Below are positions 1 through 26,773 of a stretch of DNA of 32,319 nucleotides, in pieces (the stretch's first letter is position 1; the number at the start of each line of letters is the position of its first letter). A program made the translations under genes and the position numbers. The notes under the pieces were generated by a model. That model was not told where the DNA came from. It saw only the letters and a program-made list of their open reading frames with translations, and did no database searches. Origin of the DNA: Thermodesulfobacteriota bacterium (GTDB lineage: Bacteria; Desulfobacterota; Thermodesulfobacteria; Thermodesulfobacteriales; Thermodesulfobacteriaceae); assembly GCA_030550555.1 (NCBI GenBank), contig JAUQPD010000017.1, positions 1 through 32,319 of the forward strand, read 5' to 3'.

Positions 1-121
1 TTTAGTTTTAGATGTTTTTGAGCATGCTTTCATGATTGACTATGGGTTGAAGAGGGCAGATTATATAGAAGCCTTTTTTAGAAATTTGAATTGGAAGGTA
101 GTTGAGAGTAGGTTAGTTTAG
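1..121 (+). CDS. Fe/Mn superoxide dismutase, C-terminal end (partial)
   Basis: Only the last 39 codons are inside the window; the reading frame begins at base 2 and stops at TAG 119-121. The visible segment contains the strongly conserved DVFEHAFMIDYG block followed by RADYIEAFFRNLNW. In the Fe/Mn superoxide dismutase family this block holds the C-terminal metal-ligand Asp and His (D-x-x-x-H) and the closing helix. The enzyme converts superoxide to oxygen and hydrogen peroxide in the cytoplasm. The metal (Fe, Mn or cambialistic) cannot be judged from this piece. The gene ends 26 bp before a MITE-like element, so it marks the conserved chromosomal side of the accessory island. Confidence 0.88.
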   Translation, partial: LVLDVFEHAFMIDYGLKRADYIEAFFRNLNWKVVESRLV

Positions 122-146
122 TAAGTTAAGTCACTCCATTTGAGGG

Positions 147-503
147 GCTGAGGGTGTTCTATTATATTTTATTATTTCACTTTTTTGGTCCAAATAACCC
201 CAAGCACTACGGCATATACAGATTGTAAAGAAGCATCGTGCAAAGCGCCATCTTTATAGCTATATCCTACAACTTTACTCTAAAATGGCTTCCTATAGCT
301 TGCTTAACAGTCCCAGCTTAATTTTTCCCTCTTTCCTTTTCAAATCTTTCTTGCCACTTCTCTTGCAATTCTTTGAAGTATTTCGGGATCAATTTTTTTA
401 AGTGTAAGTTCAGTTCTTCGCATTTCTATTCCTACCTCCCTTTTTCTATCCAGATTTTCCTTAAAATATTATTATAAAAATTGTTATTTAGAACACCCTC
501 AGC
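147..503. repeat. MITE-like element, copy 1 (14-bp perfect terminal inverted repeats)
   Basis: The ends are GCTGAGGGTGTTCT (147-160) and its exact reverse complement (490-503). A second copy at 6516-6863 is in the same orientation and most positions match. The reverse strand carries shreds of a transposase: an ATG at about 429 opens MRRTELTLKKIDPEILQRIA and stops soon after, and further in a different frame reads DASLQSVYAVVLGVIW. This looks like an internally deleted, non-autonomous derivative of a larger insertion sequence that kept the two ends of the transposase gene. The transposase family is not certain; the GGGTGTTCT-type terminus recalls IS256-like (mutator) elements, but that is a guess. 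Confidence 0.8.
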
Positions 504-509
504 AGGTAG

Positions 510-538
510 TTGACAAGTGATTTAAAGTTTTGTATAAT
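510..538 (+). promoter_or_regulatory. Consensus sigma-70-type promoter for the GTPase island
   Basis: TTGACA (510-515), a 17-nt spacer and TATAAT (533-538) give a perfect match in both hexamers at the optimal spacing. It begins seven bases after the right end of the MITE and lies about 105 bp upstream of a good Shine-Dalgarno (GGAGGAG, 629-635) with ATG 645. It is the only strong promoter seen before the co-oriented genes up to leoA. Confidence 0.75.
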
Positions 539-644
539 TATAAAAAATTTAAAAAATCAAAATGATGTTTTTAAAAATTTTGAGGTGGTTTATAATATTA
601 TTTTTAGGTAAAATTTAATAAATAATATGGAGGAGAGTTAAACT

Positions 645-1187
645 ATGGAGTTAGAAATAAAAGATTGTAGTTCTTCCCCAACGTCCTCCCTAGATAAAGT
701 GAGTTTTTAATTTGAATTAGCGTTGAATTTATTTAAAGAAACACCTCAAGATTTACAAATCAAATAAAGCGATGATAAAGAAATAAACTTGGCAAAGATA
801 ACTGCAATTGGTAATTTACAATGTAAAAAAGTAAAAGCATATACAGAGTTAATAGATGGTGGAATTTCTTTAATTAAATCCCTAGTTGATGCTAGGAAGG
901 AACTAGATAAATTTGAAAGAGAATTTCAAAAGGAAATAAATAAATGTAATGACAAACTTTCTGATTTAAAATCTACGGTTAATGTTTACAAGAAATAATT
1001 AGATATGCTTCAATTTTAATCAAATATGTTATTTAAAAAAGCAATTGAGTCTAAAAATTATGAAGTTATTGATAAAGTTTTAGAAATAAATAATCAGATA
1101 ATCAAATTACTATCAATTTTAACTCTTTTAAATATTAGTCTTGGAAAACACGCTAATATGTCTAAAATATTTGGAGAAATACCATGA
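645..1187 (+). pseudogene. Coiled-coil protein gene, ~180 codons, interrupted by four in-frame TAA codons
   Basis: A strong Shine-Dalgarno (GGAGGAG, 629-635) precedes ATG 645, and one frame reads sensibly to TGA 1185-1187. It is broken by TAA at 708, 765, 996 and 1017 and contains no frameshift. Each TAA sits where a Gln would read naturally, for example YKK-stop-LDMLQF-stop-SNMLF, so single CAA-to-TAA changes would explain all four. The middle and end are charged and helical (KELDKFEREFQKEI; IESKNYEVIDKVLEI), suggesting a coiled coil; no family was recognised. The stop overlaps the next gene's start as ATGA (1184-1187), the architecture of a once translationally coupled operon. The longest uninterrupted piece is 789-998 (69 aa, with a non-AUG start). 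Confidence 0.6.
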
Positions 1188-1969
1188 TTACAGAATTTGA
1201 GATAATAGACGATATCTACGAAAAAGTTCAAAGTATGCCAATTAGCAGTAGTGATTTTCATCCTACACTTAATACTCTAATAGAAACAATAAGTGAGAAA
1301 TATAAAGAAATAGATTACAAGTATAAAGATGGTATCGGAGAACTAGAGCAAGATCTTGCAGATTTCCCATTAGAAGCTATAAAATTAATGGGAGGACAAG
1401 TAAAAGATTCGTCTTAACATGGAGAGTCAAAGGGAATTTCTAAAATTATTGAAGATTTTCAAAAAACAAATAAAATTAGTTACATCGACTATCATGATGT
1501 AAGAGACAACACAAAACAGAGTTTAGCAGCAATAACAATCGTAGGTGGAATTTTAGCCATAACTGGAGTAGGAACTTTGCTATGGAAGAAGAAAAAAGAA
1601 AGAGATTTAAGAGAAAAGATTGCTGAATACAGAAGTACATATTATTCACACTTAAAAGAAAATATAAATGCACTAATATATCTAAGACAAATTTGTATAG
1701 AACAGAAGACTAATTCAGAAAGTATCCAAAGAAACGAACTTACTAAATACAATAAAAAAATTTCATCCATGCAAAAAAAGTATCTTATACTATTGAAATT
1801 ATGAATAATGCTATATTGAAAATTGATAGTTTTCTTAGTGATGAACCTATTGTAGAATTAATAAAATAAGAAGCTCAAATCTGAATACTTAAGATGGTTT
1901 AGCAAAAAAAAAGATAAGATAAATTTCTTCGTGAATAGAATTTATAATGTTAAAATCTCAGTCTATTGA
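1184..1969 (+). pseudogene. Single-pass membrane / coiled-coil protein gene with one in-frame TAA and two likely frameshifts
   Basis: ATG 1184 overlaps the previous stop. The frame runs to TAA 1415-1417, then continues in the same frame through a hydrophobic segment (about codons 109-128, AAITIVGGILAITGVGTLLW) followed by basic KKKKERD and helical sequence to TGA 1802. Coding sense then resumes in another frame after a seven-A run near 1771-1779 (…YTIEIMNNAILKIDSFL…) to TAA 1867. It resumes again in a third frame (KSEYLRWFSKKKDKINFF…) to TGA 1967-1969. Read through the defects, this is a ~260-codon protein with one transmembrane helix and a basic coiled-coil tail. Its original stop overlaps the start of the first GTPase by 23 bp. 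Function unknown; the context suggests an accessory membrane partner of the dynamin-like proteins. Confidence 0.55.
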
Positions 1970-3980
1970 ATTTACTGATTTATTAAAGACTAAAAGCAGA
2001 GAGTTCATAAATAAACTTTCTGACTTGGTCAAATTACAAAGCATTGAAACGCTCCCGGAGGAATTTAAAAGTATTCTCAGAAATATTGGTGATAAAGTCA
2101 CTGAAGCGGTCGGTGAAATTAGTGCAGAGATAGAAAAAATTACATCCAACATTCAAGCCGATACATTTAATATTAGCTTTTTTGGTGAGACCAATGCGGG
2201 AAAAAGTACATTAATTGAGGCACTTATTGGTGGGGATGGAAGATCAATAGGAACGGGTATTAAGGATTTTACTAGAGATGTTGTGGAGTATGAGTTAAAA
2301 TTAAGTAATGTAGATCGTAGAATAAAACTTATTGATATGCCTGGCATAGAAGGCAAAGAGCAGCATTTCATCGAAAAAATTAAGGAGGCTGTTTACAAAT
2401 CTCATATAGTTTTCTATGTCACTTCTGCATCTAAGGAGCCAGAAAGAGAAACATTAGTCAAGGTCAAGAATTACCTCAATAAAAAGGCAAAAGTGTTTGT
2501 GATATTAAACAAAAGGACGGGAGTTGAGTCTTACAAATACAAAAGAGTTTTAATAGATGAGAATATTGAAAAAGTCATAGAAAGAACCAAAAGTTTGATG
2601 CTAAAAGAATTGGATAATTTCTTTTCAGGAAAAATTATAGTTATAGATGCTCATCTTGCTTTTCTCTCCATGGGTAAAATAGAGGAAGGTAACAGATTCC
2701 AAAAAGATTTGGAAAAGGCTCTGTCAATTTTTAGTTCTAAGTCTGAAATGTCGTTTTTTTCAGGAATGAATTATTTAATGAAGGTCATATCTGACTTGTC
2801 TAATCCTTCAAAGCTGAATATTGAAATAATGAGAACAAATTTCTATAAAATTTTAGGTGAGATGGAGAAAATAATTACTGATATTTTGAGAAATAAAAAA
2901 GAGCTAGACCAAAAAATGAGAGAGTTGATAGATGAAAATTATAACTTAATTAAAGAAATCAAAACATATTGGCAACAATTAAGTACAAACATACTAACTG
3001 CAGCTGATTCTGAAATTGATAGAGTATGTAATGAAATAGAAAGTCGACTCTATAAAGCTACAGAGAATGATAAAGAGATAAGTGAGAGTTATATTAAAGA
3101 AGAGATTATGAATGCTTTAGTATCTATTGAGAAAAAAACCGAAACTGAAATAAGAGAATTCTCGGATTATATTCAACAAAGACTTAAAATTCATTCTGAA
3201 AAAATTGAGATATTAATTTCAATAAGACAAGCGGACTTATCATTAAATTTGAAGGAACTGTTGAATAAGACTAAAATGGGAATAGAGGATTACATAGAAA
3301 GAGCATTTAAATCATCAATACCAGTCATTTTTGGATTAATATCTGGTAAGGTTGGTCTGATACTTGGAATTGTAATATCAATCTGGAATATTTTCAAAAC
3401 TCGTGACGAAATAATTGCTAAAAAGAAAAGAATGGTGTCAGCTAGAGTCAAAAGCATGCGTGAGGAATTGAAAAAATATATACGCGATGAACTAAAAAGA
3501 GAGTTATATAAGAGGGACAGAACAATAGAAAGAATTAAGAAAAACCTCAGCAATTTAGAAAGATCTATAAGGTTTATCCTAAGAGAAATTGATTCTGGAA
3601 TTGAGGGACTTCAAGGAATTAGAAAAGAAATTACATGTTATTTTCTCAAACAGATTTTATCTTCTGAAAAGATAAATATAAAATATGGATATATTGACTT
3701 ATCACTAAGCGGAGCCTTAGTGATTATTGATAATCCACAAAAAAATGATGCCTCAAAAATTGCCAAAATACTCAACCTAAGACAAAACAATGTTTTCGTA
3801 TTTTCTAATGTGTCTCAGATATTAGAATATTATAATAACATCAATCCCCAGGATATAGAGGGAGAATTAATTTTTAGAGGATTAAATTTTCTTAAGAAAG
3901 AGTTTAATATAAACAAAATTATAAGAGACAAAATTAGCAAAAAAATTGAGATAATTTTTAAGAATGGAGGAGTAGCATGA
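1947..3980 (+). CDS. leoBC: Dynamin-like GTPase, LeoBC-type (Eleos system component)
   Basis: This 677-aa protein has an N-terminal GTPase domain: P-loop GETNAGKST (80-88) and G3 DMPG (130-133). The G4 position reads NKRT (188-191) without the usual Asp. A long helical, coiled-coil-rich stalk follows (about 290-560), interrupted by a hydrophobic stretch (458-482) that could insert into or press on membrane. A small α/β-looking C-terminal tail ends the protein. This layout is that of bacterial dynamin-like proteins. The adjacency to a clear LeoA points to LeoBC, the partner in the Eleos anti-phage system (Leo proteins were first described in enterotoxigenic E. coli). ATG 1947 is the only start after an in-frame stop at 1932; no good Shine-Dalgarno precedes it, so translation was probably coupled to the overlapping upstream gene. 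The gene is intact although its upstream partners are broken. The LeoBC assignment rests on context and fold more than on remembered sequence. Confidence 0.68.
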   Translation: MLKSQSIEFTDLLKTKSREFINKLSDLVKLQSIETLPEEFKSILRNIGDKVTEAVGEISAEIEKITSNIQADTFNISFFGETNAGKSTLIEALIGGDGRSIGTGIKDFTRDVVEYELKLSNVDRRIKLIDMPGIEGKEQHFIEKIKEAVYKSHIVFYVTSASKEPERETLVKVKNYLNKKAKVFVILNKRTGVESYKYKRVLIDENIEKVIERTKSLMLKELDNFFSGKIIVIDAHLAFLSMGKIEEGNRFQKDLEKALSIFSSKSEMSFFSGMNYLMKVISDLSNPSKLNIEIMRTNFYKILGEMEKIITDILRNKKELDQKMRELIDENYNLIKEIKTYWQQLSTNILTAADSEIDRVCNEIESRLYKATENDKEISESYIKEEIMNALVSIEKKTETEIREFSDYIQQRLKIHSEKIEILISIRQADLSLNLKELLNKTKMGIEDYIERAFKSSIPVIFGLISGKVGLILGIVISIWNIFKTRDEIIAKKKRMVSARVKSMREELKKYIRDELKRELYKRDRTIERIKKNLSNLERSIRFILREIDSGIEGLQGIRKEITCYFLKQILSSEKINIKYGYIDLSLSGALVIIDNPQKNDASKIAKILNLRQNNVFVFSNVSQILEYYNNINPQDIEGELIFRGLNFLKKEFNINKIIRDKISKKIEIIFKNGGVA

Positions 3981-5626
3981 TAAACACAGAAAGAGAAAAA
4001 ATAATTAATGAACTCAAAAATCTTGAGTCTTTTATCAAGGATTTGAATCAAAGGTATGAGCTTGAGATGGAAGATTTGATTGAAAAAATTAAAAAAGCTA
4101 TATCTAATTTAGAAAAGAGTAAATTTATAGTTGCAGTTTTCGGAGCCTTCTCTGATGGTAAATCAACCATACTGTCTGCAATTACTAAAGATTTTAATAT
4201 TAAAATCTCACCAGAGCCAACTACAGACAAAATAGTCGAATATTCCTACGGTGAATTTATTTTTGTTGATACCCCTGGAATTTTTTCTGATAACCTGATG
4301 CACGATGAAAAGACAAAAAAATTCATATCTGAGGCAAATGTGATAATATTTGTTTGTGATGCGGTTAATCCAATAAAACAAAGCCATATACCTGTTCTTA
4401 AATGGTTATTCAATGAGCTTGGAAAGCTAGATGTAACAATTTTTGTCTTAAATAAAATGGATTTAGTAGTATCACTTGAGGATGATTTTGAATTTAAGAA
4501 AATGTCAGAAATCAAGAAGAATGCCCTTTTAGAGTCACTAAAAGACATTGTAAGTATCAGTTCTGAAGTACCTATATTGTTTATATCGGCAAACCCCTAT
4601 GATTTAGGTTTTGACTATTGGAGGAATAAATGGGAAGATTATGAGAAACTTTCAAGAATAGGAACTTTAATTACTGAGATCAATCGTGCATATAATCTAT
4701 ACAAAGAAGAACTAATTATAAAAGCCGGAATCAGCGTGATAAGAGAAACTCTTTTAACTTATCTTGAGAATCTAAAAAAAATTAAGGAAATTACCGATAA
4801 GAAATTCAAAATTAACGAAAATTTAGCAAAGAAATTAGAACTTGATATGAAAAAGTTAAAGAATAATATAAGAAATTCATTTGAACTATATAAACAAGGA
4901 TTGACTAACTTGAGAGAGGATGTTCTGTTGAAGTTGGAGTCTACTAAAGATCTTGATGATTTGAGAAAATTTGTTGAGATAGAATTAGGTAAAGATGGAG
5001 AGATTTTAAAATCAAATATAGTCACCTGCATCAATAGAGCGTTATCTCCTTACGAAACTTCTGTGGTAGAATTTAATAAACAGCTTGATTTTGCTGTAGC
5101 TGATTCTTTAAAACTTCATCAGGAAATTATAATTACTGTATCAACAGGTATTGTTAAAGTGAGCGATAAAATACTTAGTTTTAATACAAGTAGTCTTATG
5201 AAAGAATTATTAAAAATAAGAAAAACTTATGGACTTGATAAAATCATAAAATTTCAGGGAAAAGGTACACATATGCAATGGGCTTCAAGGTGGGCAACTA
5301 GACTTCAAACATTTGCAAAAATAGGTAAAGTATTAGGTCAAATTTTAACAGTGATATCCTTTTTAAAAGAAATTTATGACTCATATGAGTTTAACAATAA
5401 GAAAAATGAAATCAAAGATGTAATACATTCCCTATTTAAAGAGTTATTAGAGATAAGTTATGATGAATATGTAAAAACTTTTTTTCCTTTTGTTGTTGAT
5501 TTTGATAAAGAGTTTTCGAAATTAAGACAGGAAATCGAACATGACAGAGAAATGATCCATGAACTTAGTAAAGATCTATTAAACATTGAAGGAATGCTCA
5601 GAAAGTTTAAATATTTGCCAAAATAA
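3977..5626 (+). CDS. leoA: Dynamin-like GTPase LeoA (Eleos system component)
   Basis: This 549-aa protein has all G motifs: P-loop GAFSDGKST (56-64), G3 DTPG (98-101), G4 NKMD (159-162) and a G5-like SAN (204-206). The segment between G3 and G4 (FISEA…CDAVNPIKQSH…LKW) closely resembles what I recall of E. coli LeoA, and GAFSDGK is characteristic. A long helical stalk follows, with a short hydrophobic stretch near 447-463. LeoA is a bacterial dynamin; with LeoBC it forms Eleos, a defence system thought to act at membranes during phage infection. The start is well supported by GGAGGAG at 3965-3971 and overlaps the leoBC stop by 4 bp (ATGA), implying translational coupling and stoichiometric expression. 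Base composition is markedly AT-rich, as in the rest of the island. Confidence 0.82.
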   Translation: MINTEREKIINELKNLESFIKDLNQRYELEMEDLIEKIKKAISNLEKSKFIVAVFGAFSDGKSTILSAITKDFNIKISPEPTTDKIVEYSYGEFIFVDTPGIFSDNLMHDEKTKKFISEANVIIFVCDAVNPIKQSHIPVLKWLFNELGKLDVTIFVLNKMDLVVSLEDDFEFKKMSEIKKNALLESLKDIVSISSEVPILFISANPYDLGFDYWRNKWEDYEKLSRIGTLITEINRAYNLYKEELIIKAGISVIRETLLTYLENLKKIKEITDKKFKINENLAKKLELDMKKLKNNIRNSFELYKQGLTNLREDVLLKLESTKDLDDLRKFVEIELGKDGEILKSNIVTCINRALSPYETSVVEFNKQLDFAVADSLKLHQEIIITVSTGIVKVSDKILSFNTSSLMKELLKIRKTYGLDKIIKFQGKGTHMQWASRWATRLQTFAKIGKVLGQILTVISFLKEIYDSYEFNNKKNEIKDVIHSLFKELLEISYDEYVKTFFPFVVDFDKEFSKLRQEIEHDREMIHELSKDLLNIEGMLRKFKYLPK

Positions 5627-6006
5627 ATATTTATTTTGAATGAATTTTTCGCAAGAGTGTAAACTAACCTAAAAATTTAAAAATTTAAACATGAGAGAAA
5701 AGGAGATGGAAAATTTTACGAAACTTGTAAAATTCTAATTGAATGCGAAGATTTTAAATTTTACAATGACAAGGAAATCAAGGTTATTTGTAAAAAAGGA
5801 CGAAAAAAAAACAGACTTTGTAGCAGTAAATAGAAAATAGAACTTTTATAATTTGTAAAGTAAAATCACTTAAAGAGGGTCTTAAATCATCAACTTGGAG
5901 ACAAATCTAAAAAAAGTGATACTGTATATTTTGGCAGATTTAAGACACTTAGTCAGAGAATTAGAGAAAGAATGTAAAAAAATAAATAAATAGGGGGAGG
6001 GGATTA
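5627..6006 (+). pseudogene. Degraded coding remnants downstream of leoA
   Basis: No intact gene is present, but stretches read like protein. From about 5703 one frame gives GKFYETCKILIECEDFKFYN… and loses sense at a nine-A run near 5803-5811. Another frame from 5886 gives a clean 35-residue end (…ILADLRHLVRELEKECKK…) stopping at TAG 5991, immediately before the next ribosome binding site. This suggests one or two small genes of the island that have decayed by indels and nonsense changes. No family was recognised. Confidence 0.35.
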
Positions 6007-6311
6007 ATGGACGAGTTGGAAAAACTGGAAAAACTTCTCTTAGATCTCATAAGAAGATTAGCAGGACAGAAGGTGGTAAAATATTAGGAGCTCATGGAAA
6101 GGAGACACTCGGACCAACTGAAACAATGTTAGATTTAGCAAAAAAAATGCTTGATGAATTAAGGAAAATTAAAAGTAAAAAAATTAATTGTTTTGAATCT
6201 ATCTTATACTATACAACCCTACAATATAAAGGATTGATATATCATTTTTCAACAATTAAAAAACAAATACACTTAGAATCATCTGTCTCTTTAAAAAAAG
6301 CTAATAAATGA
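6007..6311 (+). pseudogene. Small helical protein gene, probably frameshifted
   Basis: A strong purine-rich ribosome binding site (GGGGAGGGG, 5994-6002) precedes ATG 6007. The first frame gives MDELEKLEKLLLDLIRRLAGQ and stops at TAG 6085. The neighbouring frame is open from 6060 and continues naturally (EGGKILGAHGKETLGPTETM…) to TGA 6309-6311. A one-base indel near 6060-6072 would join them into a ~101-codon protein. The longest uninterrupted ORF is 6126-6311 (61 aa). The N-terminus is an amphipathic Leu/Glu/Lys helix; no family was recognised. The stop overlaps the next start as ATGA, so this was part of a coupled gene set following leoA. Confidence 0.4.
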
Positions 6312-6463
6312 GGCTGTTCGATAATCTTAATCCGGATCTTGACATAAAATTTGCTGAAAAATTTAAATCTATAAAGAAATGCCACAAAAAAGGAGCAAAT
6401 GTTCTTCACCCTTTCAATGTATTTGCCTTCAACTCTAATTTGGTGCTTTGGCTATTTTGGTGA
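6308..6463 (+). pseudogene. 5' fragment of a gene truncated by insertion-sequence DNA
   Basis: ATG 6308 overlaps the preceding TGA. About 44 codons read as protein (MRLFDNLNPDLDIKFAEKFK…) before the sequence passes, near 6444, into the conserved tail of the rve-type IS found elsewhere in the window; the frame ends at TGA 6461. The gene therefore appears cut off by an IS, leaving only its N-terminus. Product unknown. Confidence 0.4.
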
Positions 6464-6513
6464 GAAATTTTTTAAAAATCCATCACAGCCTAAAATCCCA
6501 TGGTTGCATACAA
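6444..6513 (+). mobile_element. IS right-end fragment (tail of rve transposase)
   Basis: The sequence from the GGTGCTTTGGCTATTTTGG region to GCATACAAGG aligns base by base, with substitutions, to the tails at 7396-7475, 8229-8304, 10047-10131 and 32050-32122. Key shared words are TATTTT-GTGA, TTTAAAAA, CCTAAAAT(C) and ATGG-GCATAC. It is the most diverged copy. Only the 3' end of the transposase and the terminal bases remain, directly followed by MITE copy 2. Confidence 0.55.
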
Positions 6514-6515
6514 GG

Positions 6516-6863
6516 TCTGAGGGTGTTCCATAGTGTTATTAATATTCCATTTTTTTTGGTCCAAATAACCCCAAACACTACGGCTATATACAGATAGTAA
6601 AAAAGCATCGTGCAAGCGCCATCTTTATTGCTATGTCCTCCAACTTTACTCTAAAATGACTTCCTATGCTTGCTTAACCGTCCCCGCTTAATTTTTCCCT
6701 CTTTCCTTTTCAAAATCTTTCTTGCCACTTCTCTTGCAATTCTTTGATGTATTTCGGGATTAATTTTTTAAGTGTAAGTTCAGTTCTTCGCATTTCTATT
6801 CATAACTCCTTTTTGTATCCAGATTTTCTTTAAGTAAAAATTGTTATTCAGAACACCCCCTTG
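6516..6863. repeat. MITE-like element, copy 2
   Basis: Direct-orientation copy of the element at 147-503. It shares long identical blocks, for example the GGTCCAAATAACCCCAA region and the GTGTAAGTTCAGTTCTTCGC region. The left end CTGAGGGTGTTCC and right end AGAACACCCCC are imperfect, so this copy is more decayed than copy 1. Together the two copies bracket the GTPase island like the ends of a composite element. Confidence 0.75.
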
Positions 6864-6869: not shown

Positions 6870-7475
6870 CCCCTGCATAAGTTCCGGTGCCTTTTAGAAG
6901 GAAAAATATGGTAAAGTGGAAGTTAAAGATCATAAGAAAGGGGGATAATGATGAAGAAGAGGGGTAGGTATGGAAAGACTTAAACTTACTGCAAAAACTT
7001 GAAACCCTTAAAGATGTCTCAAAAAGAGAGGAAGTTACCCTTAGAGTCATCCAAGACTTGGCAGAGAGAAGTTTAAACCTTTGGTTATACTCATTTATCC
7101 AGTAGGGTAGCTCGTGATTTTTTAGAGAAATTTTGTGCTGAAGCTCCCTTTTGAGATAAGGGGGTGAAGACAGATAAAGGGAGTGAGTTTTTAAGGGAAT
7201 TTGAGAGATATTTGAGGATTATCCGAGATATCCTAAGGGGAATGTTTATGTAGAGAGATTTAATAGGAGTCTTGTGGAGGGATTTATAGATTATCGGGAG
7301 GATGAGTTGAGAGAGGACATAGAGGGATTCAACCGAGAGCTTATGTAGTATTTGATTTGGTGTAATACGGAGAGGGTTCATTCAGGGATAGGGGGAGAAG
7401 CTCCTTTGAGGTATTTTTGTGATAAGTATTTAAAAAATTCAGTCGAGTCAAAAATCATATGAACGCATACAGGGG
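6870..7475 (+). mobile_element. Degenerate rve-type insertion sequence (IS481/IS3-like group)
   Basis: The left end CCCCTGCATAAGTTCC (6870) and right end ACGCATACAGGGG (7463-7475) form a plausible imperfect inverted repeat. Pieces of a DDE integrase-core transposase are readable: VKTDKGSEFLREFERYL (about 7160-7210), then VERFNRSLVEGFIDYR and NTERVHSGIGG (7245-7390), ending LKNSVESKII. D, the GSEF block and the E of VERFNR fit the rve fold. In-frame stops, a frameshift near 7225 and a shortened N-terminal half show it is dead. A related copy lies at 31643-32122. Confidence 0.72.
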
Positions 7476-7476
7476 C

Positions 7477-7504
7477 TTGACAGAGAACATTTTGAACGTA
7501 TTCT
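7477..7504 (+). promoter_or_regulatory. Promoter formed at the IS right end
   Basis: TTGACA (7477-7482) lies two bases outside the IS terminus. A 16-nt spacer and TATTCT (7499-7504) follow, 36 bp ahead of the coiled-coil gene start. The same GGGGCTTGACA junction recurs at 10128-10138, so the -35 hexamer may be part of the element's end. Confidence 0.45.
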
Positions 7505-7539
7505 TTATGAGTAGATGAAATTCAAATATGAGGTGTGTT

Positions 7540-8088
7540 ATGCAGACTCAAACGGATATAATACAAACTCCTGAGTTTAAGGGACTACTTGTGGCGCTTA
7601 TAGAAGAGACCATAAGGGAAAGGTTAAAAGAGTATGTGATGGAGCGAGAAAAGCAAGCGAGGGAAGTTTCCATAATTGAGCGTCTCTTGAAGGTAGAGGA
7701 AGAGCTCAGAGCTCAGAGAGAGTCCTCGGAAAAGCGTTTTGAAGCTATTTTACAGGAGATGAATACTCGTTTTGAGGCCATGAATGCCCGCTTTGAGGCT
7801 TTGCAGAGGGAAATGAATGCACGCTTTGAGGTCATGAATGCCCGCTTTGAGGCTTTGCAGAAGGAGATGAATACTCGCTTTGAGGCCATGAATGCCCGCT
7901 TTGAGGCTTTACAGAGGGAAATGAATGCCCGCTTTGAGGCCATGAATGCTCGCTTTGAGGCTTTGCAGAAGGAAATGAATGCCCGCTTTGAGGCTTTAGA
8001 GAAGCGCTTTACTTTTCTCCAATGGCTTGTAGTTGGTGCTGTATCCTTTTTTGGCGTCCTTTTAACTGCCGTAACTATTTTGCGCTAA
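7540..8088 (+). CDS. Tail-anchored coiled-coil protein with 18-residue repeats (DUF1640-like)
   Basis: The start is set at the second ATG (7540), which has GAGGTG (7530-7535) at suitable spacing; an upstream in-frame ATG at 7528 would add four residues. The product is ~182 aa. It has a charged helical N-terminus (EETIRERLKEYVMEREKQAR), a long coiled coil of four 18-residue units (MNxRFEAMNARFEALQxE) plus a partial fifth, and a single C-terminal hydrophobic helix (about 20 residues before ILR). This matches the layout of small bacterial coiled-coil proteins annotated DUF1640, often located near IS or toxin/antitoxin genes. Function is not established. It could act as a membrane-tethered oligomer or scaffold. 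It sits between two IS remnants and may use an IS-borne promoter. Confidence 0.7.
   Translation: MQTQTDIIQTPEFKGLLVALIEETIRERLKEYVMEREKQAREVSIIERLLKVEEELRAQRESSEKRFEAILQEMNTRFEAMNARFEALQREMNARFEVMNARFEALQKEMNTRFEAMNARFEALQREMNARFEAMNARFEALQKEMNARFEALEKRFTFLQWLVVGAVSFFGVLLTAVTILR
7759..7998 (+). repeat. Four 54-bp tandem repeats plus a partial unit inside the coiled-coil gene
   Basis: Units start at 7759, 7813, 7867 and 7921, with a 24-bp partial unit from 7975. Each encodes 18 residues and contains a shorter sub-repeat (MNARFEA / ARFEALQ). Alternating units are more alike (first with third, second with fourth), suggesting duplication of a 108-bp pair. Being a multiple of three, copy-number change would keep the frame and alter coiled-coil length. 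Confidence 0.9.
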
Positions 8089-8171: not shown

Positions 8172-8304
8172 CCCCTGCATAAGTTTCTCAAGAATTTTAG
8201 TTCACTTGTAAAGTGTAACTCTTACGAAGAGACACCTTTAGGGTATTTTTGCGAAAAATTTCTTAAAAATTCTTCAGAGTCTAAAATCTTATGGTCTCAT
8301 ACAC
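8172..8304 (+). mobile_element. Short internally deleted IS derivative
   Basis: It begins with the IS left end CCCCTGCATAAGTT (8172-8185). Within about 45 bp it passes into the transposase tail (CACCTTTAGGGTATTTTTGCG…TCTAAAATCTTATGG) and ends in CATACAC. Only the two ends survive, so it resembles a MITE made from the same rve-type IS. Confidence 0.6.
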
Positions 8305-8355
8305 GTGATTTCAGTGATAAAATCTAAACATGTAAATTTTTACTGGAGGTAATCC

Positions 8356-9078
8356 ATGAATCGAAGTCTTAAGGATAAGATTCTTGACTACTCAGTAAAG
8401 TACTACAATGATTTCTTAAAACCACTTGAGCCAAAAAGAGAGAGGATGCTTGAAGACCCTAAGGAGGCCCTTTACTTTTTCTTTGACAGAGTTTTCTATC
8501 AAGGTAGGCAAAACAGTGTCTCTGACAGAGTGCGGGATGAAGCAAAGGCTGCCATTGAGGAATTTGAGAGGGAAAGAGGAGATTTTAAGGCACTTTTTGA
8601 TCTTCAAAATCACGGACGCCTTAGAGAACTTCTTTCCTTACGGATTGGGAAAGGAAAGGTTGGAAGGAAGCTGGACAAAGATTTGGTGATTTCTCTCTTA
8701 GAGTTTGGAGCAAAGGTTAAAGGGAATAATTTAGTGAGTTTCTTAAAAGATAATTTTCAAAGAGGAAGGGTAAGGAGTCTATTTCTGGAGCTTCAGAAGA
8801 TAAGAGGGATAGGACCAAAAATTTCCTCATTTATCTTGAGGGATTTTTCAGTGCTATACGAATTAGATCAAGGATTAAGCGATGATGACTATGTGGTCTT
8901 ACAGCCGATTGATTTATGGGTAAAAAAGGTAGGAGTTTTGCTTGGACTTTATAAATCCCCTGAAGAGACAGATGAGAGGATAAGAATTTATATAGTTGAC
9001 TACTGCAAAAGCCAAAAACTTTCTCCTCCGAGATTTAACCAAGGCATGTGGTATTACGGTTTTAGTGAGAGACCCTAG
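8356..9078 (+). CDS. HhH-GPD superfamily DNA glycosylase-like protein
   Basis: This 240-aa protein has a helix-hairpin-helix at 146-161 (LQKIRGIGPKISSFIL) and an Asp at 186 in QPIDLWVKK. Their spacing matches endonuclease III/OGG-type enzymes, where the HhH Lys (here K155) forms the Schiff base and the downstream Asp activates it. Both key residues are present, which predicts a bifunctional base-excision glycosylase/AP lyase. There is no C-terminal cysteine cluster for a 4Fe-4S centre, so it is not classical Nth or MutY. The N-terminal 145 residues are helical and not assigned. The start has GGAGGT about 8 bp upstream (8344-8349). The substrate is unknown; deaminated or oxidised bases would be typical for a thermophile. 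It lies alone between mobile-element remnants. Confidence 0.68.
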   Translation: MNRSLKDKILDYSVKYYNDFLKPLEPKRERMLEDPKEALYFFFDRVFYQGRQNSVSDRVRDEAKAAIEEFERERGDFKALFDLQNHGRLRELLSLRIGKGKVGRKLDKDLVISLLEFGAKVKGNNLVSFLKDNFQRGRVRSLFLELQKIRGIGPKISSFILRDFSVLYELDQGLSDDDYVVLQPIDLWVKKVGVLLGLYKSPEETDERIRIYIVDYCKSQKLSPPRFNQGMWYYGFSERP

Positions 9079-10046: not shown

Positions 10047-10131
10047 CGGGGAAAAACTCCTTTGGGGTATTTTTGTGAAGAGTATTTAAAAAATCCAGCC
10101 GAGTCTAAAACCACATGGACGCATTCAGGGG
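10047..10131 (+). mobile_element. IS right-end fragment immediately upstream of the rRNA operon
   Basis: The sequence GGGGAAAAACTCCTTTGGGGTATTTTTGTG… to ACGCATTCAGGGG matches the tails at 7396-7475 and 32050-32122. Only the last ~85 bp of the element remain. Its terminal GGGG is followed at once by CTTGACA, the -35 of the first rRNA promoter-like site. Confidence 0.7.
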
Positions 10132-10132
10132 C

Positions 10133-10160
10133 TTGACAAATTAAAAGGGTGAGTTATTTT
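10133..10160 (+). promoter_or_regulatory. rRNA operon promoter P1 (IS-adjacent)
   Basis: TTGACA (10133-10138), 16-nt spacer, TATTTT (10155-10160). The -10 is weak, but the site is the first of three TTGACA-bearing sites spaced 66 and 84 bp apart before the 16S gene. Confidence 0.4.
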
Positions 10161-15701: not shown

Positions 15702-17555
15702 ATGAACTCAGTGTTAAAAATCATTGGTTTAATACTCTTAACTTTTTTTCTTTTTCTTGGAATTATTGCTCTCATTCTCTTTCTCTATCTCAAGATCAGC
15801 CTTCCAAGTATATCTCAACTCAAAAACTATAACCCTAAACAGGCCATTCTTATTGTTGACAATCAGGGCAAAGTTATTGGCTATCTCGGAGAAGAGAGGA
15901 GGATTTACGTTCCGTTGGAGAAAATACCAGATCACGTTATCAAGGCCTTTATCGCAGCAGAAGATGCAAATTTTTATAAACATAGAGGAATAGACTTTTT
16001 TAGTCTTGTTAGGGCTTTGTTTAAAAATCTCATTTCGGGACGTATTGTTCAGGGAGGAAGCACAATAACTCAGCAAGTAGCAAAATCGCTCTTATTGACA
16101 CCTGAGAGGACCTTTTCGAGAAAATTCAAAGAATTGATACTTGCTTGGCAAATTGAAAAACATCTTACGAAAGACGAGATCCTTAACATATATTTGAATC
16201 ATATCTACTTAGGTGAAGGAGCCTATGGGGTGGAGGCAGCTTCTTTGACTTATTTCGGAAAACACGTGTGGGAGCTTGACCTACTGGAAGCTGCAACCAT
16301 TGCTGGTCTTCCTCCTGCACCAGCTAGATTCAGTCCTTTAAATAATCCTAATGGAGCACTTACGAGAAGAAATTATGTCTTACGAAGAATGGCAGAAGTA
16401 GGATTTATATCTTGGGAGCAAGCAAATTACTTAATGACAAGGCCTCTTCAGCTTAATCCAAAGAATGTGAATATTCCTGCCCATAGTGCCTATTTTATTG
16501 ATATTGTCAGAGCTGAACTTGAAAGACTTTTACCAAAAGAGGTTTTAAAATGGGGAGGATTTAAGGTAGTAACAACTCTTGATGTAGATTGGCAGAAGCG
16601 TGGAACAGAAAATCTTGTCAGTTCACTTCTACGTCAGCATCCTGGAAATCCACCAGAGGTGTCAGCTGTCTGCATAAGTAATGAAGATGGAGGGGTGAGA
16701 TATTTGCTTGGTGGAAGAGACTATCTCAAGTCCTCTTACAACCGGGCTATTCTTGGCAAAAGACAACCTGGCTCATCTTTTAAACCTTTCATTTGGGCAG
16801 AGGCTTTTGAGAAAGGGCTCTTGACACCCAATTCCGTGCTTCCTGACGAACCCATTATTTTGCCTGGAGCTGATGCTGGAAAGGATTGGGCTCCCGGAAA
16901 CTATGATGGGAAATACATGGGCCCAATGAATCTCAAACAGGCGCTTGCTCTTTCAAGAAATACAATCGCAGTTAGAATAGCTGTGATTCTTGGAGTAGAC
17001 AATTTAAGAGATATGGTTAAGAGATTGGAGTTCGATTTTACCCAGCCAATAAATTTTAGTATTGCCCTGGGAACCTATGAACTCACTCCTCTCGAGTTGA
17101 CAACTGCTTATACGGTTTTCCCAACACTAGGTGCTAAGTGGAAACCGCGTTTTATTGAAGCGATATACGATAAAGTTCATAATGGAAGAGAAATCTATAG
17201 GTCTCAACCAGAGAATAAACAGGTTTATTCACCTGCAACGATGAGTATTATGAATGAATTTTTACAAGAAGTTGTCCGTTCTGGAACGGGTAGATGTGCA
17301 TCAGCTCTCGGAGTTCCTGTTGGTGGTAAAACAGGGACAACACAAGATTATAGAGATGCCTGGTTCATTGCTTTCACAGCTGATTATACCTGTGGAGTGT
17401 GGGTAGGATATGACAAGGCTAGGACCCTTCACAGAGGAGAGACCGGAGGGAGAATTGCCTGTCCACTTTGGTTGGCTTTAATGCAAGCAAGAGCTCATGC
17501 CCCCAAGCCTATTCCAACTTATACTCCACCTATTGAAGTGGGAAGCATTAATTAA
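15702..17555 (+). CDS. mrcA: Penicillin-binding protein 1A (bifunctional peptidoglycan synthase)
   Basis: This 617-aa class A PBP polymerises lipid II glycan chains and cross-links peptides in the periplasm, anchored by an N-terminal transmembrane helix (about 5-31). The glycosyltransferase domain (about 60-235) has the catalytic Glu in EDANFYKHRG (E87) and GGSTITQQ (118-125). The transpeptidase domain has SSFK (S358, K361), SRN (418-420) and KTGTT (543-547), so all active-site motifs are intact. The length is at the short end for the family, lacking large inserts such as the E. coli OB domain. No clear Shine-Dalgarno precedes ATG 15702. It stands alone between the rRNA operon and the flavin reductase operon. 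Confidence 0.95.
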   Translation: MNSVLKIIGLILLTFFLFLGIIALILFLYLKISLPSISQLKNYNPKQAILIVDNQGKVIGYLGEERRIYVPLEKIPDHVIKAFIAAEDANFYKHRGIDFFSLVRALFKNLISGRIVQGGSTITQQVAKSLLLTPERTFSRKFKELILAWQIEKHLTKDEILNIYLNHIYLGEGAYGVEAASLTYFGKHVWELDLLEAATIAGLPPAPARFSPLNNPNGALTRRNYVLRRMAEVGFISWEQANYLMTRPLQLNPKNVNIPAHSAYFIDIVRAELERLLPKEVLKWGGFKVVTTLDVDWQKRGTENLVSSLLRQHPGNPPEVSAVCISNEDGGVRYLLGGRDYLKSSYNRAILGKRQPGSSFKPFIWAEAFEKGLLTPNSVLPDEPIILPGADAGKDWAPGNYDGKYMGPMNLKQALALSRNTIAVRIAVILGVDNLRDMVKRLEFDFTQPINFSIALGTYELTPLELTTAYTVFPTLGAKWKPRFIEAIYDKVHNGREIYRSQPENKQVYSPATMSIMNEFLQEVVRSGTGRCASALGVPVGGKTGTTQDYRDAWFIAFTADYTCGVWVGYDKARTLHRGETGGRIACPLWLALMQARAHAPKPIPTYTPPIEVGSIN

Positions 17556-17588
17556 TCAATTTGTCAACTTTTTGATATCCTCGCTTTC

Positions 17589-17616
17589 TTGACTATTGAA
17601 GAGAGTCCTTTAAAAT
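17589..17616 (+). promoter_or_regulatory. Promoter of the flavin reductase-ribD operon
   Basis: TTGACT (17589-17594), 16-nt spacer and TAAAAT (17611-17616), about 45 bp upstream of the first start codon. Confidence 0.55.
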
Positions 17617-17662
17617 AGACCTATTAGGTAAGCTTAATATCACTATTGTGTGGAGGGAAGCT

Positions 17663-18142
17663 ATGGGCCTTCAAAAAATAATTACTACCTATATTCCTCA
17701 AGGGGTATTTATCGTTACAACTCAAGCAGAGGGTAAAATAAATGGAATGACCGCTGCCTGGGTCTCTCAAGTCTCTTTTAAACCGAGATTACTTGCGGTA
17801 GCAATAGCTCCTCAAAGATATACCTTTGAGTTGATTCAGATTTCAAAGGTTTTTTGTATAAATGTGCTTGCGGAAAATCAGGTAGAGCTTGCACGGCTTT
17901 TTGGTTTTTACAGCGGAAGGAAGAAAAACAAGTTTGAAAATGTGCCCTATAAGTTTGCGCTTAAGGGATCTCCTGTACTTCTTGATGCCATTGCTTATTT
18001 TGAGTGCGAATTGACTCACCAATATGAGGCAGGAGATCATTATATTGTGGTAGGAGAGGTTGGGGATTATGAGGTAATGGCTCCTGAGAGAAAACCTCTA
18101 CTTTTCAGGTGGGACGATTATTTTGGTGGAGTCGAGGGCTAA
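17663..18142 (+). CDS. Flavin reductase-like, FMN-binding protein
   Basis: A ~159-aa protein of the flavin reductase-like / FMN-binding split-barrel family. It reads MGLQKIITTYIPQGVFIVTT, then NGMTAAWVSQVSFKPRLLAVAI, then a GDHYIVVGEV strand, the usual three landmarks of the fold. Such proteins bind FMN and reduce flavin or another acceptor with NAD(P)H; the substrate is not identifiable. ATG 17663 is preferred because GGAGG (17652-17656) sits just upstream, although the frame is open to GTG 17648. The stop overlaps the next start (TAATG). Sharing an operon with ribD links it loosely to flavin supply. Confidence 0.85.
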   Translation: MGLQKIITTYIPQGVFIVTTQAEGKINGMTAAWVSQVSFKPRLLAVAIAPQRYTFELIQISKVFCINVLAENQVELARLFGFYSGRKKNKFENVPYKFALKGSPVLLDAIAYFECELTHQYEAGDHYIVVGEVGDYEVMAPERKPLLFRWDDYFGGVEG

Positions 18143-18762
18143 TGGAAGAGGATAGATTACTTCAATTTCATGAAAAACTAAAAGACTTTCTACAACGGCA
18201 TCTCACATTTTTGATAAATGTAGTAATTGTATTTGTCATTCTAATTTTTATTAGTGGTGGTTATGTATACTATAAGAGGTACAAGGAAAAGAAGGCCCTA
18301 AACGAATATGTTGAGCTAATTCAGAAAAATGCAGATATAAAGAGTTACAAAGAATTCGTCAAGAAATATAAAAACACTCAGGCAGGTATCCAAGCAACAA
18401 TATCAATATGGAATAGGGCAGTTATGAATAACGATTTAGAATTGATGAAAGGAGAGGTAACAGGTCTTAAAAAGATTTACCCATCAGCGATTGATTTCCT
18501 ACCAAGGTATTCTGAGGCTAAGATTTATGAGGAAAGTGGTAATTTTGATGAAGCAATAAAAATTTATAACTCCCTGTTAGAAAAAAACTCCTTCATAAAA
18601 GAATTTGTAATTTTAGATTTAGCTTTGTTACAAGAAAAGAAAAACAAGGAGCAGGCGTTAAAAATTTATCAACAACTTCTATCAAATCTCACCTCAGAGC
18701 ATCCTTTTAGAGGATTCGTAGAGAATCGCATTTATTCTCTTCAGAGAGATCAGAGAAGTTGA
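18142..18762 (+). CDS. YfgM-like membrane-anchored tetratricopeptide protein
   Basis: A ~206-aa protein when started at ATG 18142, which overlaps the preceding stop as TAATG; a longer in-frame start at 18109 would overlap further and is less likely. It has a short cytoplasmic N-terminus, one transmembrane helix (about 24-43, LINVVIVFVILIFISGG), then a helical repeat region with TPR-like units (SEAKIYEESGNFDEAIKIYN; QEKKNKEQALKIYQQLL). This is the layout of the YfgM/ancillary SecYEG translocon subunit family, which helps hand exported proteins to periplasmic chaperones. Sequence similarity is only moderate, so the functional call is tentative. Confidence 0.6.
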   Translation: MEEDRLLQFHEKLKDFLQRHLTFLINVVIVFVILIFISGGYVYYKRYKEKKALNEYVELIQKNADIKSYKEFVKKYKNTQAGIQATISIWNRAVMNNDLELMKGEVTGLKKIYPSAIDFLPRYSEAKIYEESGNFDEAIKIYNSLLEKNSFIKEFVILDLALLQEKKNKEQALKIYQQLLSNLTSEHPFRGFVENRIYSLQRDQRS

Positions 18763-18773
18763 GGTAAAGGAAA

Positions 18774-19247
18774 TTGCCTTTTAGTGTCTTCAAGAGAATA
18801 GCAGAGGAGAGAATACGAGAGGCTATGGAAATGGGCCTTTTTGATGAGTTGGAATACAAGGGGAAACCTATTGAAATAAAAGAGGATCCCTTTGTCCCAG
18901 AGGAGCTCAGAATAGCCTATAGGATGTTGAAAAATGCGGGTTTTGTACCAAAGGAGGTTGAACTAAGGAAGGAGATAGAGAGGCTTGAAGAGTTGATGGA
19001 TGAGGATCATCAAGAGGCCTATAGCAAGATCAGGAAATTAAGTGCGCTTCTTTTTCATCTACAGCAGATAAGAGATCGTCCTCTTCAGGTAGAGGAACAG
19101 GAATACTATGTAAAGATTGTTGAAAGGGTGAAAGTTAATAGGTATAAAAGAGAGGGAGGGGCGCAGGAAGAGCCAAGAAAAATTAACTTTTCTCGTCTTC
19201 AAACATTACTATCAATCAGGTCCCTTGTAATTCGAGGAAGAAGATAG
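18774..19247 (+). CDS. DUF1992 protein (DnaJ-homologue subfamily C28 conserved domain)
   Basis: A 157-aa protein whose N-terminal half carries the DUF1992 signature: IAEERIREAMEMGLFDELEYKGKPI, DPFVPEELRIAYRMLKNAGFVPKEVELRKEI. The domain is named after DNAJC28 but has no J domain; its biochemical role is unclear. The C-terminal third is basic. A TTG start at 18774 is used because no ATG begins the conserved block; GAGGT and AAAGGA lie just upstream. The gap to the preceding gene is 11 bp, so it is cotranscribed. Confidence 0.8.
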   Translation: MPFSVFKRIAEERIREAMEMGLFDELEYKGKPIEIKEDPFVPEELRIAYRMLKNAGFVPKEVELRKEIERLEELMDEDHQEAYSKIRKLSALLFHLQQIRDRPLQVEEQEYYVKIVERVKVNRYKREGGAQEEPRKINFSRLQTLLSIRSLVIRGRR

Positions 19248-19256
19248 ATAAAAGAC

Positions 19257-20405
19257 ATGATATCAATGCCTCTAAGAGATGATGTATTTTACATGAGGCT
19301 TGCACTGCGTGAGGCCTATAAAGGTTACGGTAAAACCTCTCCTAATCCCCCTGTTGGTGCTATTGTTGTTGATCCTACTAGTGGAGAGGTAATTAGTAGG
19401 GGTTATCATAGAGCCTATGGAGAGCCTCATGCAGAGGTCGTTGCCTTGCATAAGGCAGGGGATAGAGCAAGAGGGGCTATACTCTATGTAACCCTTGAAC
19501 CCTGTTGTCACTATGGTAAGACTCCACCATGCACTGAGGCAATCATCAATGCTGGCATAAAAATGGTGGTTTGTGGGATACGAGATCCTAATCCAATTGC
19601 CTGTAATGGCCTAATTCAACTGAGACAAAGGGGAGTTGAAGTTAAAGTAGGGGTGCTTGCAGAAGAAATAAAGTATTTAAAGAGATTTTTTCTTTCAAGA
19701 ATCTTAAGGAAGAGACCATGGGTAATGGTGAAGGTAGCCCAAAGTATGGATGGAAGAATTGCGGTTTCCACTGGAGATTCAAAGTGGATTTCAGGATACA
19801 GAGCAAGAGTTTTTGCTCACAAATTGCGAAGCATTGCAGATGCTATTCTTGTTGGGAAAGAAACTGTTTTGAAAGATGATCCAGAGCTTACAACAAGACT
19901 TGTTAGAGGAAAAAATCCTATAAGAATTGTCCTTGATACGAATGCAACTTTGAGCCCTAAATTTAAGGTCTTTCAGGTGTCTGATACGAAGAAGACAATT
20001 CTTGTTTGTAGTGAAAAGGTTTCAAAAGATAAATTAGCTGACTTTGAAAGACAGGGAGTTCAGGTTTGGCAACTTCCTGTTGAAGATAGGGGTATTGATC
20101 TAAACTGTTTTCTTGAGAGGGCCAATCTTGAAGGTATAACATCAATCCTTGTTGAAGGTGGAGGAGTTTTGCATGGTGCCTTTTTGCGAAAAGGCCTCAT
20201 TGATGAACTCTTTATAGTAATTGCTCCCATCATAATTGGGGATCCAAAGGGAGTATTTAGCTTTATGGCAGAACCTTTGGAAAGATTAAAAGATGCCCAT
20301 AGGCTCTATGACGTGAAACTAAAAAAGTTAGATGAATGTTATCTTTTTCATGGCTTTACAGAAGGAGGTATAAATCTGCTTAATACTCACTTAGAATATC
20401 TTTAA
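19257..20405 (+). CDS. ribD: Bifunctional riboflavin biosynthesis deaminase/reductase RibD
   Basis: 382 aa. The N-terminal cytidine-deaminase-like domain has the zinc site HAE (58-60) and PCCHYGKTPPC (C83, C92); it deaminates the pyrimidine produced by GTP cyclohydrolase II. The C-terminal reductase domain (about 150-370) begins RPWVMVKVAQSMDGRIA and includes GDSKWISG and ILVEGGG; it reduces the ribosyl side chain with NADPH. These are two successive steps of riboflavin synthesis in the cytoplasm. A downstream ATG at codon 4 is an alternative start. No FMN riboswitch precedes it, as it is the last gene of its operon. The 3' end overlaps convergent coaE by 26 bp. Confidence 0.96.
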   Translation: MISMPLRDDVFYMRLALREAYKGYGKTSPNPPVGAIVVDPTSGEVISRGYHRAYGEPHAEVVALHKAGDRARGAILYVTLEPCCHYGKTPPCTEAIINAGIKMVVCGIRDPNPIACNGLIQLRQRGVEVKVGVLAEEIKYLKRFFLSRILRKRPWVMVKVAQSMDGRIAVSTGDSKWISGYRARVFAHKLRSIADAILVGKETVLKDDPELTTRLVRGKNPIRIVLDTNATLSPKFKVFQVSDTKKTILVCSEKVSKDKLADFERQGVQVWQLPVEDRGIDLNCFLERANLEGITSILVEGGGVLHGAFLRKGLIDELFIVIAPIIIGDPKGVFSFMAEPLERLKDAHRLYDVKLKKLDECYLFHGFTEGGINLLNTHLEYL

Positions 20406-20964
20406 GCTCTTCTCGAAGTTCATCTAAAGGTTTTTCGGAGGATATTACGCGATCAGCCCTTTTGATTTTTTCCTCTATGGGGATTTGGAGAGTTGCGAGG
20501 AGTAGCCAATTTTCTGGGTCTTGCCTTTTGAGAATTCGCTCTTTCTGAATCTGCTCAGAGCAGGAAACTACCCAGATTTCATCAAAGTACTTATCCCAGT
20601 TTGCTTCGAAGAGAAGAGGAACCTCAACGAAGATGGGGTTAGCCTTGTCTGCTAAATCTTGTAAAATCCTTTTTTGAATTTCTTTCCAAACAAGGGGATG
20701 GAGAAACTGTTCAAGCCTTTTTTTCAGATTAGAGTCCTTGATTATAGCAAGGAGCAGTTTTTTTCTATCAATTTCACCAGCCGTGTTAAGTATATCTATA
20801 TCACAGAGGGACTTAATATTCTCTTTTATCTCTTTGTGTGTGTATAGATCTTTAACAATATCATCGCAGGAAAGCACAGAAAATCCCAATTCCTTGATGA
20901 TATTCAACACGGTGCTTTTACCAGTTGCTAGACCACCAGTGATGGCAATTAGTTTTTTTTTCAT
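20380..20964 (-). CDS. coaE: Dephospho-CoA kinase
   Basis: 194 aa. Phosphorylates the 3'-OH of dephospho-CoA with ATP, the last step of CoA synthesis. The P-loop GGLATGKST (10-18) is followed by SCDDIVKDLY, the acceptor-binding DxxxxxL-type segment, and a LLFEANWDKYFDEIWVV region typical of CoaE, then the lid RILKRQ. Family-normal length. The start overlaps the rluD stop by 4 bp, so it is the last gene of the AI-2E-mutM-rluD-coaE transcript. Its 3' end crosses the end of ribD on the other strand. Confidence 0.95.
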   Translation of the reverse strand: MKKKLIAITGGLATGKSTVLNIIKELGFSVLSCDDIVKDLYTHKEIKENIKSLCDIDILNTAGEIDRKKLLLAIIKDSNLKKRLEQFLHPLVWKEIQKRILQDLADKANPIFVEVPLLFEANWDKYFDEIWVVSCSEQIQKERILKRQDPENWLLLATLQIPIEEKIKRADRVISSEKPLDELREELKDILSEY

Positions 20965-23783: not shown

Positions 23784-23833
23784 ACACAGAATAATATAAT
23801 CTCCAGACAGTTCTTTGGGAAGAGCTATTTCTC

Positions 23834-23862: not shown

Positions 23863-23868
23863 GGAAAT

Positions 23869-26771: not shown

Positions 26772-26773
26772 AA

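What the first reader, a model, noticed from the sequence alone, without database searches (positions are those of the whole stretch)
504..6515. Eleos-type LeoBC-LeoA dynamin island in a thermophile, bracketed by direct MITE copies
Two intact overlapping dynamin-like GTPases sit in a very AT-rich block exactly between two same-orientation MITE-like repeats. LeoA shows GAFSDGKST, DTPG and NKMD. The layout suggests a mobile defence cassette. Neighbouring small genes are decaying while 3.7 kb of GTPase sequence stays open, implying selection on the pair.
Basis: partly seen in the sequence, partly recalled or inferred. Interest (0 to 1): 0.75.

Follow-up and report, generated by a model that had tools for sequence, protein, structure and literature searches.

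The report
Laterally acquired Eleos dynamin gene pair
A heat-loving bacterium carries a foreign, intact pair of membrane-remodelling GTPase genes of the already known anti-virus system Eleos, lodged among transposon debris just upstream of its ribosomal RNA genes; it is a new, rather divergent member of a known kind, and the transposon-like repeats on either side are not shown to have carried it in.

Summary
The gene pair is real. LeoBC (1947-3980, 677 aa) and LeoA (3977-5626, 549 aa) match the Eleos profiles strongly (PADLOC LeoBC 1.4e-73, LeoA 3.3e-81; NCBIfam LeoA/HP0731 2.8e-109, above cut-off). Modelled folds fit bacterial dynamins. The pair is absent from every sampled genome of its family. 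Congeners show an empty site: G004 has sod directly before the rRNA operon, and G001 has neither MITE nor leo. So the locus was most likely gained laterally, into a ~10 kb insertion zone between sod and rrn. The two MITE-like repeats are real and in the same orientation. They are only ~90% identical, no closer than to other copies in the genome, show no target-site duplication, and have further debris outside and between them. The 'MITE-bracketed mobile cassette' is therefore not supported. Best reading: a functional, divergent Eleos anti-phage pair. It belongs to a LeoBC subgroup with no insert between the G1 and G2 motifs and an extra C-terminal domain of unknown fold. In 91 scorable loci, every insert-free LeoBC (15) has such a tail and every insert-bearing one lacks it. 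Defence genes flank its relatives. Anti-phage activity here is inferred, not shown. Novelty: new member of a known kind.

The parts
1947..3980 (+). LeoBC: N-terminal helices, GTPase domain (~73-285) without the G1-G2 insert, helical stalk, hydrophobic paddle segment (~461-479), return stalk, C-terminal alpha/beta domain (~578-671)
   Evidence: PADLOC LeoBC 1.4e-73; Pfam MMR_HSR1 and Dynamin_N; AlphaFold2 model mean pLDDT 74.8; best solved folds BDLP 2J69, LeoA 4AUR, Campylobacter DLP pair 5OWV
3977..5626 (+). LeoA: second dynamin-like GTPase; start overlaps the leoBC stop (ATGA) behind GGAGGAG
   Evidence: NCBIfam NF041922 2.8e-109 above cut-off; PADLOC LeoA 3.3e-81; Pfam DLP_helical 3.7e-28; PDB 4AUR LeoA E 2.4e-98 by profile, 9.7e-19 by fold
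510..538 (+). perfect sigma-70-type promoter match TTGACA-17-TATAAT, candidate promoter of the whole + strand gene run
   Evidence: expected 0.01 such matches in simulated sequence of this region; function not shown
645..1181 (+). decayed gene remnant (four in-frame TAA stops); coiled-coil-like, no clear family
1184..1801 (+). decayed gene remnant (one in-frame TAA, frameshifted end) with one hydrophobic segment; no reliable family
147..503 (+). MITE-like element c1, internally deleted insertion sequence, 15-bp perfect terminal inverted repeats
6517..6860 (+). MITE-like element c2, same orientation, 90% identical to c1
6430..6515 (+). 3' tail of an unrelated transposase (same family as the repeats at 7392-7482, 8224-8314, 10048-10138), between leoA and c2
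   Evidence: frame +1 translation FGYFGEKFFKNPSQPKIPWLHTR, compared with repeat family D3
1..121 (+). 3' end of superoxide dismutase gene; 1-127 is an exact overlap with the end of contig C29
10101..15569 (+). rRNA leader and rRNA operon, the right-hand border of the insertion zone

Best explanation
This is a complete two-gene Eleos system (LeoBC + LeoA), gained laterally by this lineage and inserted among transposon debris between sod and the rRNA operon. Shown: both are full-length dynamin-like GTPases of the Leo families, with overlapping reading frames, intact P-loops and DxPG motifs, absent from relatives that have an empty site. Inferred: the two proteins form a hetero-oligomer at the inner membrane through GTPase-domain contacts and the LeoBC paddle. 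Upon phage-induced membrane disturbance they bind GTP, assemble, and remodel or hold the membrane, so that phage release or assembly is limited. In this subgroup the C-terminal domain of LeoBC may take over a regulatory or docking role that the G1-G2 insert plays in other Eleos proteins.
For: PADLOC, NCBIfam and Pfam matches; PDB LeoA 4AUR full length and dynamin folds; leoBC before leoA in the relatives; Eleos is an established system name (PMC11811056, PMC10482375) and the related B. subtilis DynA delays phage lysis (PMC8844932). Relatives of the same subgroup lie beside Lamassu and a type IV restriction enzyme (L075), Tiamat (L076), type I RM (L082) and type III CRISPR (L083). Lateral gain: absent in the family, empty site in G004 and G001, GC 0.29-0.30 against 0.38.
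Against: No experiment. No other recognised defence gene next to it in this window. LeoA and LeoBC here are the most divergent of their clade: they differ at 22% and 25% of columns that are invariant in the other members, against 19% and 17% for the next. The widely conserved LeoA motif FKPWGA is replaced by FQGKGTHMQWA. Candidate operon partners upstream are broken.
Confidence: 0.72

Rival explanations
1. The pair has a general membrane role (vesicle release, membrane repair or stress tolerance), as proposed for LeoABC in E. coli, and any phage effect is a by-product.
For: E. coli leoA/leoB deletions halve vesicle-associated Tat-GFP and OmpA (PMC4159319); DynA also protects membranes against antibiotics (PMC8844932).
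Against: Patchy, laterally moving distribution and defence-gene neighbours in the same subgroup fit defence better than housekeeping.
Confidence: 0.2
2. The two MITE copies act as the ends of a composite mobile unit that carried the Eleos pair into this site.
For: Same orientation, terminal inverted repeats, c1 lies within 30 bp of the sod stop codon; the site is empty in congeners.
Against: c1 and c2 differ by ~10%, as much as from copies elsewhere in the genome; no target-site duplication at either copy nor a convincing one across the pair; an unrelated transposase tail lies inside the interval; 3.2 kb of other debris follows c2; no transposase is retained.
Confidence: 0.1
3. The pair is a recently silenced relic that is simply slower to collect stops than its small neighbours.
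For: Upstream frames of the same gene run are broken; LeoA and LeoBC are the most divergent of the clade; LeoA paddle motif lost.
Against: 3.7 kb without a stop or frameshift, where the two upstream frames have four stops and one stop plus a frameshift in ~1.2 kb; G1 and G3 motifs intact in both proteins; ATGA overlap kept; most substitutions at invariant sites are conservative.
Confidence: 0.1

Closest known systems
Eleos (LeoBC + LeoA), PADLOC/DefenseFinder defence system
   Same: two adjacent dynamin-like GTPase genes, leoBC before leoA, profile matches over nearly the whole profiles
   Different: LeoBC lacks the insert between G1 and G2 and carries a C-terminal domain outside the profile; thermophilic host lineage; LeoA paddle motif altered
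LeoA/LeoB/LeoC of enterotoxigenic E. coli (LeoA structure 4AUR)
   Same: LeoA is homologous over its full length; LeoB+LeoC together correspond to LeoBC
   Different: there LeoBC is split into two genes within the GTPase domain, at the insert that is missing here (PMC4159319)
Compact LeoBC-LeoA pairs of Rossellomorea, Bacillus, Paenibacillus, Cohnella, Loosdrechtia, Desulforhopalus, Melioribacteraceae (L074-L083)
   Same: no insert, C-terminal domain, best matches (LeoBC E 1e-56 to 1e-70, LeoA 33-44% identity), same clade with strong support
   Different: only 25-35% identical over full length; the window proteins branch first in the clade or nearly so
Campylobacter DLP1/DLP2 pair (5OWV) and cyanobacterial BDLP (2J69)
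   Same: overall dynamin fold; 5OWV is a two-protein membrane-tethering assembly, a mechanistic model for paired DLPs
   Different: not Leo family by sequence; not reported here to share the C-terminal alpha/beta domain
Bacillus subtilis DynA
   Same: dynamin-like protein with two DLP units that delays phage lysis (PMC8844932)
   Different: single fused protein, not a Leo pair

Membership tests
Eleos | LeoA of the LeoA/HP0731 dynamin family | tested here: met
   NF041922 366.5 bits against a cut-off of 325; PADLOC LeoA 3.3e-81; 4AUR 2.4e-98
Eleos | LeoBC (or LeoB + LeoC) adjacent upstream of leoA | tested here: met
   PADLOC LeoBC 1.4e-73, residues 19-551 on profile 27-583 of 601; 4-bp overlap with leoA
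Eleos | intact GTPase motifs | tested here: met
   G1 and G3 intact in both, NKMD in LeoA; LeoBC lacks a canonical NKxD here and in its subgroup, which mostly reads N-V-R
Eleos | protects against phages | not testable with these tools
   needs an expression and plaque assay
Dynamin-like proteins | GTPase domain plus long helical stalk with a hydrophobic paddle | tested here: met
   hydrophobic peak 2.24 at LeoBC 461-479; LeoA paddle is weakly hydrophobic and low confidence
MITE-bounded composite transposon | near-identical terminal copies | tested here: not met
   90.4% over 324 bp, similar to other genomic copies at 87-89%
MITE-bounded composite transposon | target-site duplication around the unit | tested here: not met
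   flanks read by eye at both copies and across the pair; no convincing repeat
MITE-bounded composite transposon | empty site in relatives with the junction expected from the unit | tested here: inconclusive
   empty sites exist (G004, G001) but carry no MITE and are too diverged near the junction

The most novel reading that the evidence does not exclude
Insert-free LeoBC with a C-terminal domain of unknown fold marks a separate Eleos subtype, in which the tail replaces the G1-G2 insert as the sensing or docking module. The insert gained in the other lineage is what later allowed the leoB/leoC gene split in the middle of the GTPase domain.
Probability: 0.3. Interest if true: 0.5.

Novelty: new member of a known kind. 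Interest (0 to 1): 0.33.

Why it matters
It places a complete Eleos pair in a thermophilic lineage, with an empty site in congeners that marks it as a gain of this lineage, and it may offer a heat-stable pair for biochemistry: E. coli LeoB and LeoC could not be obtained in sufficient amounts (PMC4159319). The comparison also suggests that LeoBC comes in two architectures, with or without a G1-G2 insert, and that the gene split occurs only in the insert-bearing one. That is a testable handle on how paired bacterial dynamins are regulated.

Tried and rejected
Homologues of the decayed upstream frames in related Eleos loci: none found. The MITEs as derivatives of the Mutator-type insertion sequence in contig C7: rejected, because that element has its own different ends and lies inside a MITE copy there. 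Homology of the LeoBC C-terminal tails between the window's clade and the G252-type group: not demonstrable (hhalign probability 0.2). A Pfam or PDB match for the C-terminal domain: none. Phage records encoding LeoBC: none; IMG/VR contigs do hold Leo pairs. First-pass LeoA hits in the genus and family: weak (best E ~1e-5 in congeners), consistent with unrelated GTPases. dN/dS: not run, because relatives are at 25-35% identity and saturated. The whole genome was not available as a file. The literature library holds no primary Eleos test; my recollection that Eleos was tested from Bacillus (now Rossellomorea) vietnamensis in B. subtilis is unverified here.

Full report
What is there. The window is the whole of contig C49 (32,319 bp) of a 1.71 Mb genome in 58 contigs. 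Two overlapping ORFs lie at 1947-3980 and 3977-5626. The first is LeoBC: PADLOC LeoBC E = 1.4e-73, and Pfam MMR_HSR1 and Dynamin_N above their cut-offs. The second is LeoA: PADLOC LeoA 3.3e-81, NCBIfam LeoA/HP0731 2.8e-109 with 366.5 bits against a cut-off of 325, and Pfam DLP_helical 3.7e-28. A profile of the LeoA clade finds the solved E. coli LeoA (4AUR) over its full length at 2.4e-98. AlphaFold2 models (mean pLDDT 76.5 and 74.8) match LeoA, BDLP and the Campylobacter DLP pair best. The confident parts are the GTPase domains and stalks; the paddles are poorly modelled. The longest open run in 2000 shuffles of this stretch is 189 codons.

Anatomy. A perfect TTGACA-17-TATAAT match lies at 510-538, just inside the left repeat; 0.01 such matches are expected in the region. 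It could drive one + strand run: two decayed frames (645-1181 and 1184-1801), then leoBC and leoA, the latter started by ATGA overlap behind GGAGGAG. The decayed frames have four in-frame TAA codons and one in-frame TAA plus a shifted end, respectively (sequence, frames). No relative of either frame was found beside other Eleos pairs, so they are not established parts of the system.

A lateral gain with an empty site. No convincing leo gene was found in the other six congeners or the rest of the 30-genome family. Among 345 sampled genomes of the phylum only G252 has another LeoBC below 1e-30. Contig C29 ends in sod, and its last 127 bp equal window 1-127 exactly, so C29 and C49 are neighbours in the assembly graph. 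C29 carries trpB, trpA, aroB, dapF, dapA, a Crp-type regulator and two radical-SAM genes, then a peroxiredoxin and sod (gene names from my reading of the translations). The same order leads into the rRNA operon in the complete congener G001 with no sod, MITE or leo. In congener G004, sod is followed after about 340 bp by the 16S gene. The roughly 10 kb between sod and the rRNA leader at about 10101 is therefore an insertion zone private to this genome among those compared. Its leo part has GC 0.29-0.30 against 0.38 for 15702-31209. Loss in the others is possible but needs more events.

The flanking repeats. Copies c1 (147-503) and c2 (6517-6860) have terminal inverted repeats (15 bp, perfect, in c1) and reading-frame scraps of both ends of a transposase, so they look like internally deleted insertion sequences. 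Other copies or full elements of the family sit at contig ends. c1 and c2 are 90.4% identical over 324 bp, while c1 is 88.7% and 87.5% identical to copies in C7 and C12 over about 100 bp each, so the pair is not specially related. I saw no target-site duplication. An unrelated transposase tail lies between leoA and c2, and debris continues after c2 to the rRNA leader. The repeats are better read as part of the insertion-sequence clutter than as the ends of a moving unit.

Relatives and architecture. A profile-based scan of genome contigs and a viral scan gave about 90 loci, almost all with LeoBC beside LeoA. Counting residues between fixed landmarks flanking G1 and G2, and residues after position 555, 15 complete LeoBC have no insert and a tail of 107-133 residues: the window, G252 (L069), L074-L083 and L160-L162. 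The 76 others have an insert and a tail of at most 26 residues. L084 (Persephonella) also has no insert but is cut off before the tail. The split leoC/leoB form occurs only with long inserts (114 residues or more). The classification was automatic; 11 insert-bearing loci with long or fragmentary ORFs were not resolved as fused or split, and the script's label 'split' for L084 is wrong (it joined LeoA to the truncated LeoBC). The sample was drawn with a query set led by the window protein, so frequencies mean little. In a LeoA tree the insert-free loci form one side of a branch (95% SH-aLRT). In a LeoBC tree from which insert and tail were removed, the window and L074-L083 form a clade (100%), but the G252-type group stands apart, and its tail is not demonstrably homologous. 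The tail of the window's clade has no Pfam or PDB match and is predicted with good confidence as an alpha/beta domain (residues ~578-671).

Function. Eleos is listed as an anti-phage system in recent surveys; a cellular relative, DynA, delays phage lysis. Relatives in the window's subgroup lie beside Lamassu genes and a type IV restriction enzyme (L075), Tiamat (L076), type I restriction (L082) and type III CRISPR (L083). In E. coli the same family was linked to vesicle release, which is the main functional rival. I take membrane-acting defence by a LeoA-LeoBC hetero-oligomer as most likely. Assembly, trigger and effect are inference.

Is the pair under selection? This could not be tested directly. 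In leave-one-out counts the window proteins differ at 25% (LeoBC) and 22% (LeoA) of the columns invariant in the rest of the clade; the next most divergent member differs at 17% and 19% and most at 0-8%. G1 and G3 are intact in both, and most changes are conservative. LeoA has lost the FKPWGA paddle motif. This fits a long separate history and leaves room for relaxed constraint.

Caution. One pair of family scans read the two decayed upstream frames through their stops. One of them then showed a weak, far sub-threshold resemblance (17.5 bits, cut-off 125) to a binary toxin subunit family. I did not take that further and list it as a referred step.

Noticed in passing
window 1-127 and G000:C29:9674-9800: Exact 127-bp overlap of two contig ends inside sod, the length of an assembler k-mer, which implies a branch in the assembly graph here; possibly a second arrangement downstream of sod in the sample.
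   Followed up: partly
window 7392-7482, 8224-8314, 10048-10138, 32048-32138: Four copies of a transposase 3' tail; the one at 10048 is fused to the rRNA leader (GGGGCTTGACA), and the congener G001 has a similar tail at the same place (L193 13519).
   Followed up: partly
window 7528-8088: Coiled-coil protein with a 54-bp tandem repeat (MNARFEALQ-type units).
   Followed up: no
window 8356-9078: 240-aa orphan protein without a match in the genus and no Pfam or PADLOC family, inside the same insertion zone.
   Followed up: partly
L193 about 17812-18544: Congener G001 has a ~730-bp insertion with an intron-endonuclease-like ORF in its 23S rRNA gene that the window lacks.
   Followed up: no
L084 1236-3976: Persephonella contig with the reverse order, LeoA before LeoBC, also with no insert: a second carrier from a thermophilic lineage.
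   Followed up: no
L073 6107-9440: Enterococcus faecium plasmid with a broken Leo pair.
   Followed up: no
window 5249-5287 (LeoA residues 425-437): The widely conserved LeoA motif FKPWGA is replaced by FQGKGTHMQWA; Persephonella LeoA is also altered there.
   Followed up: partly
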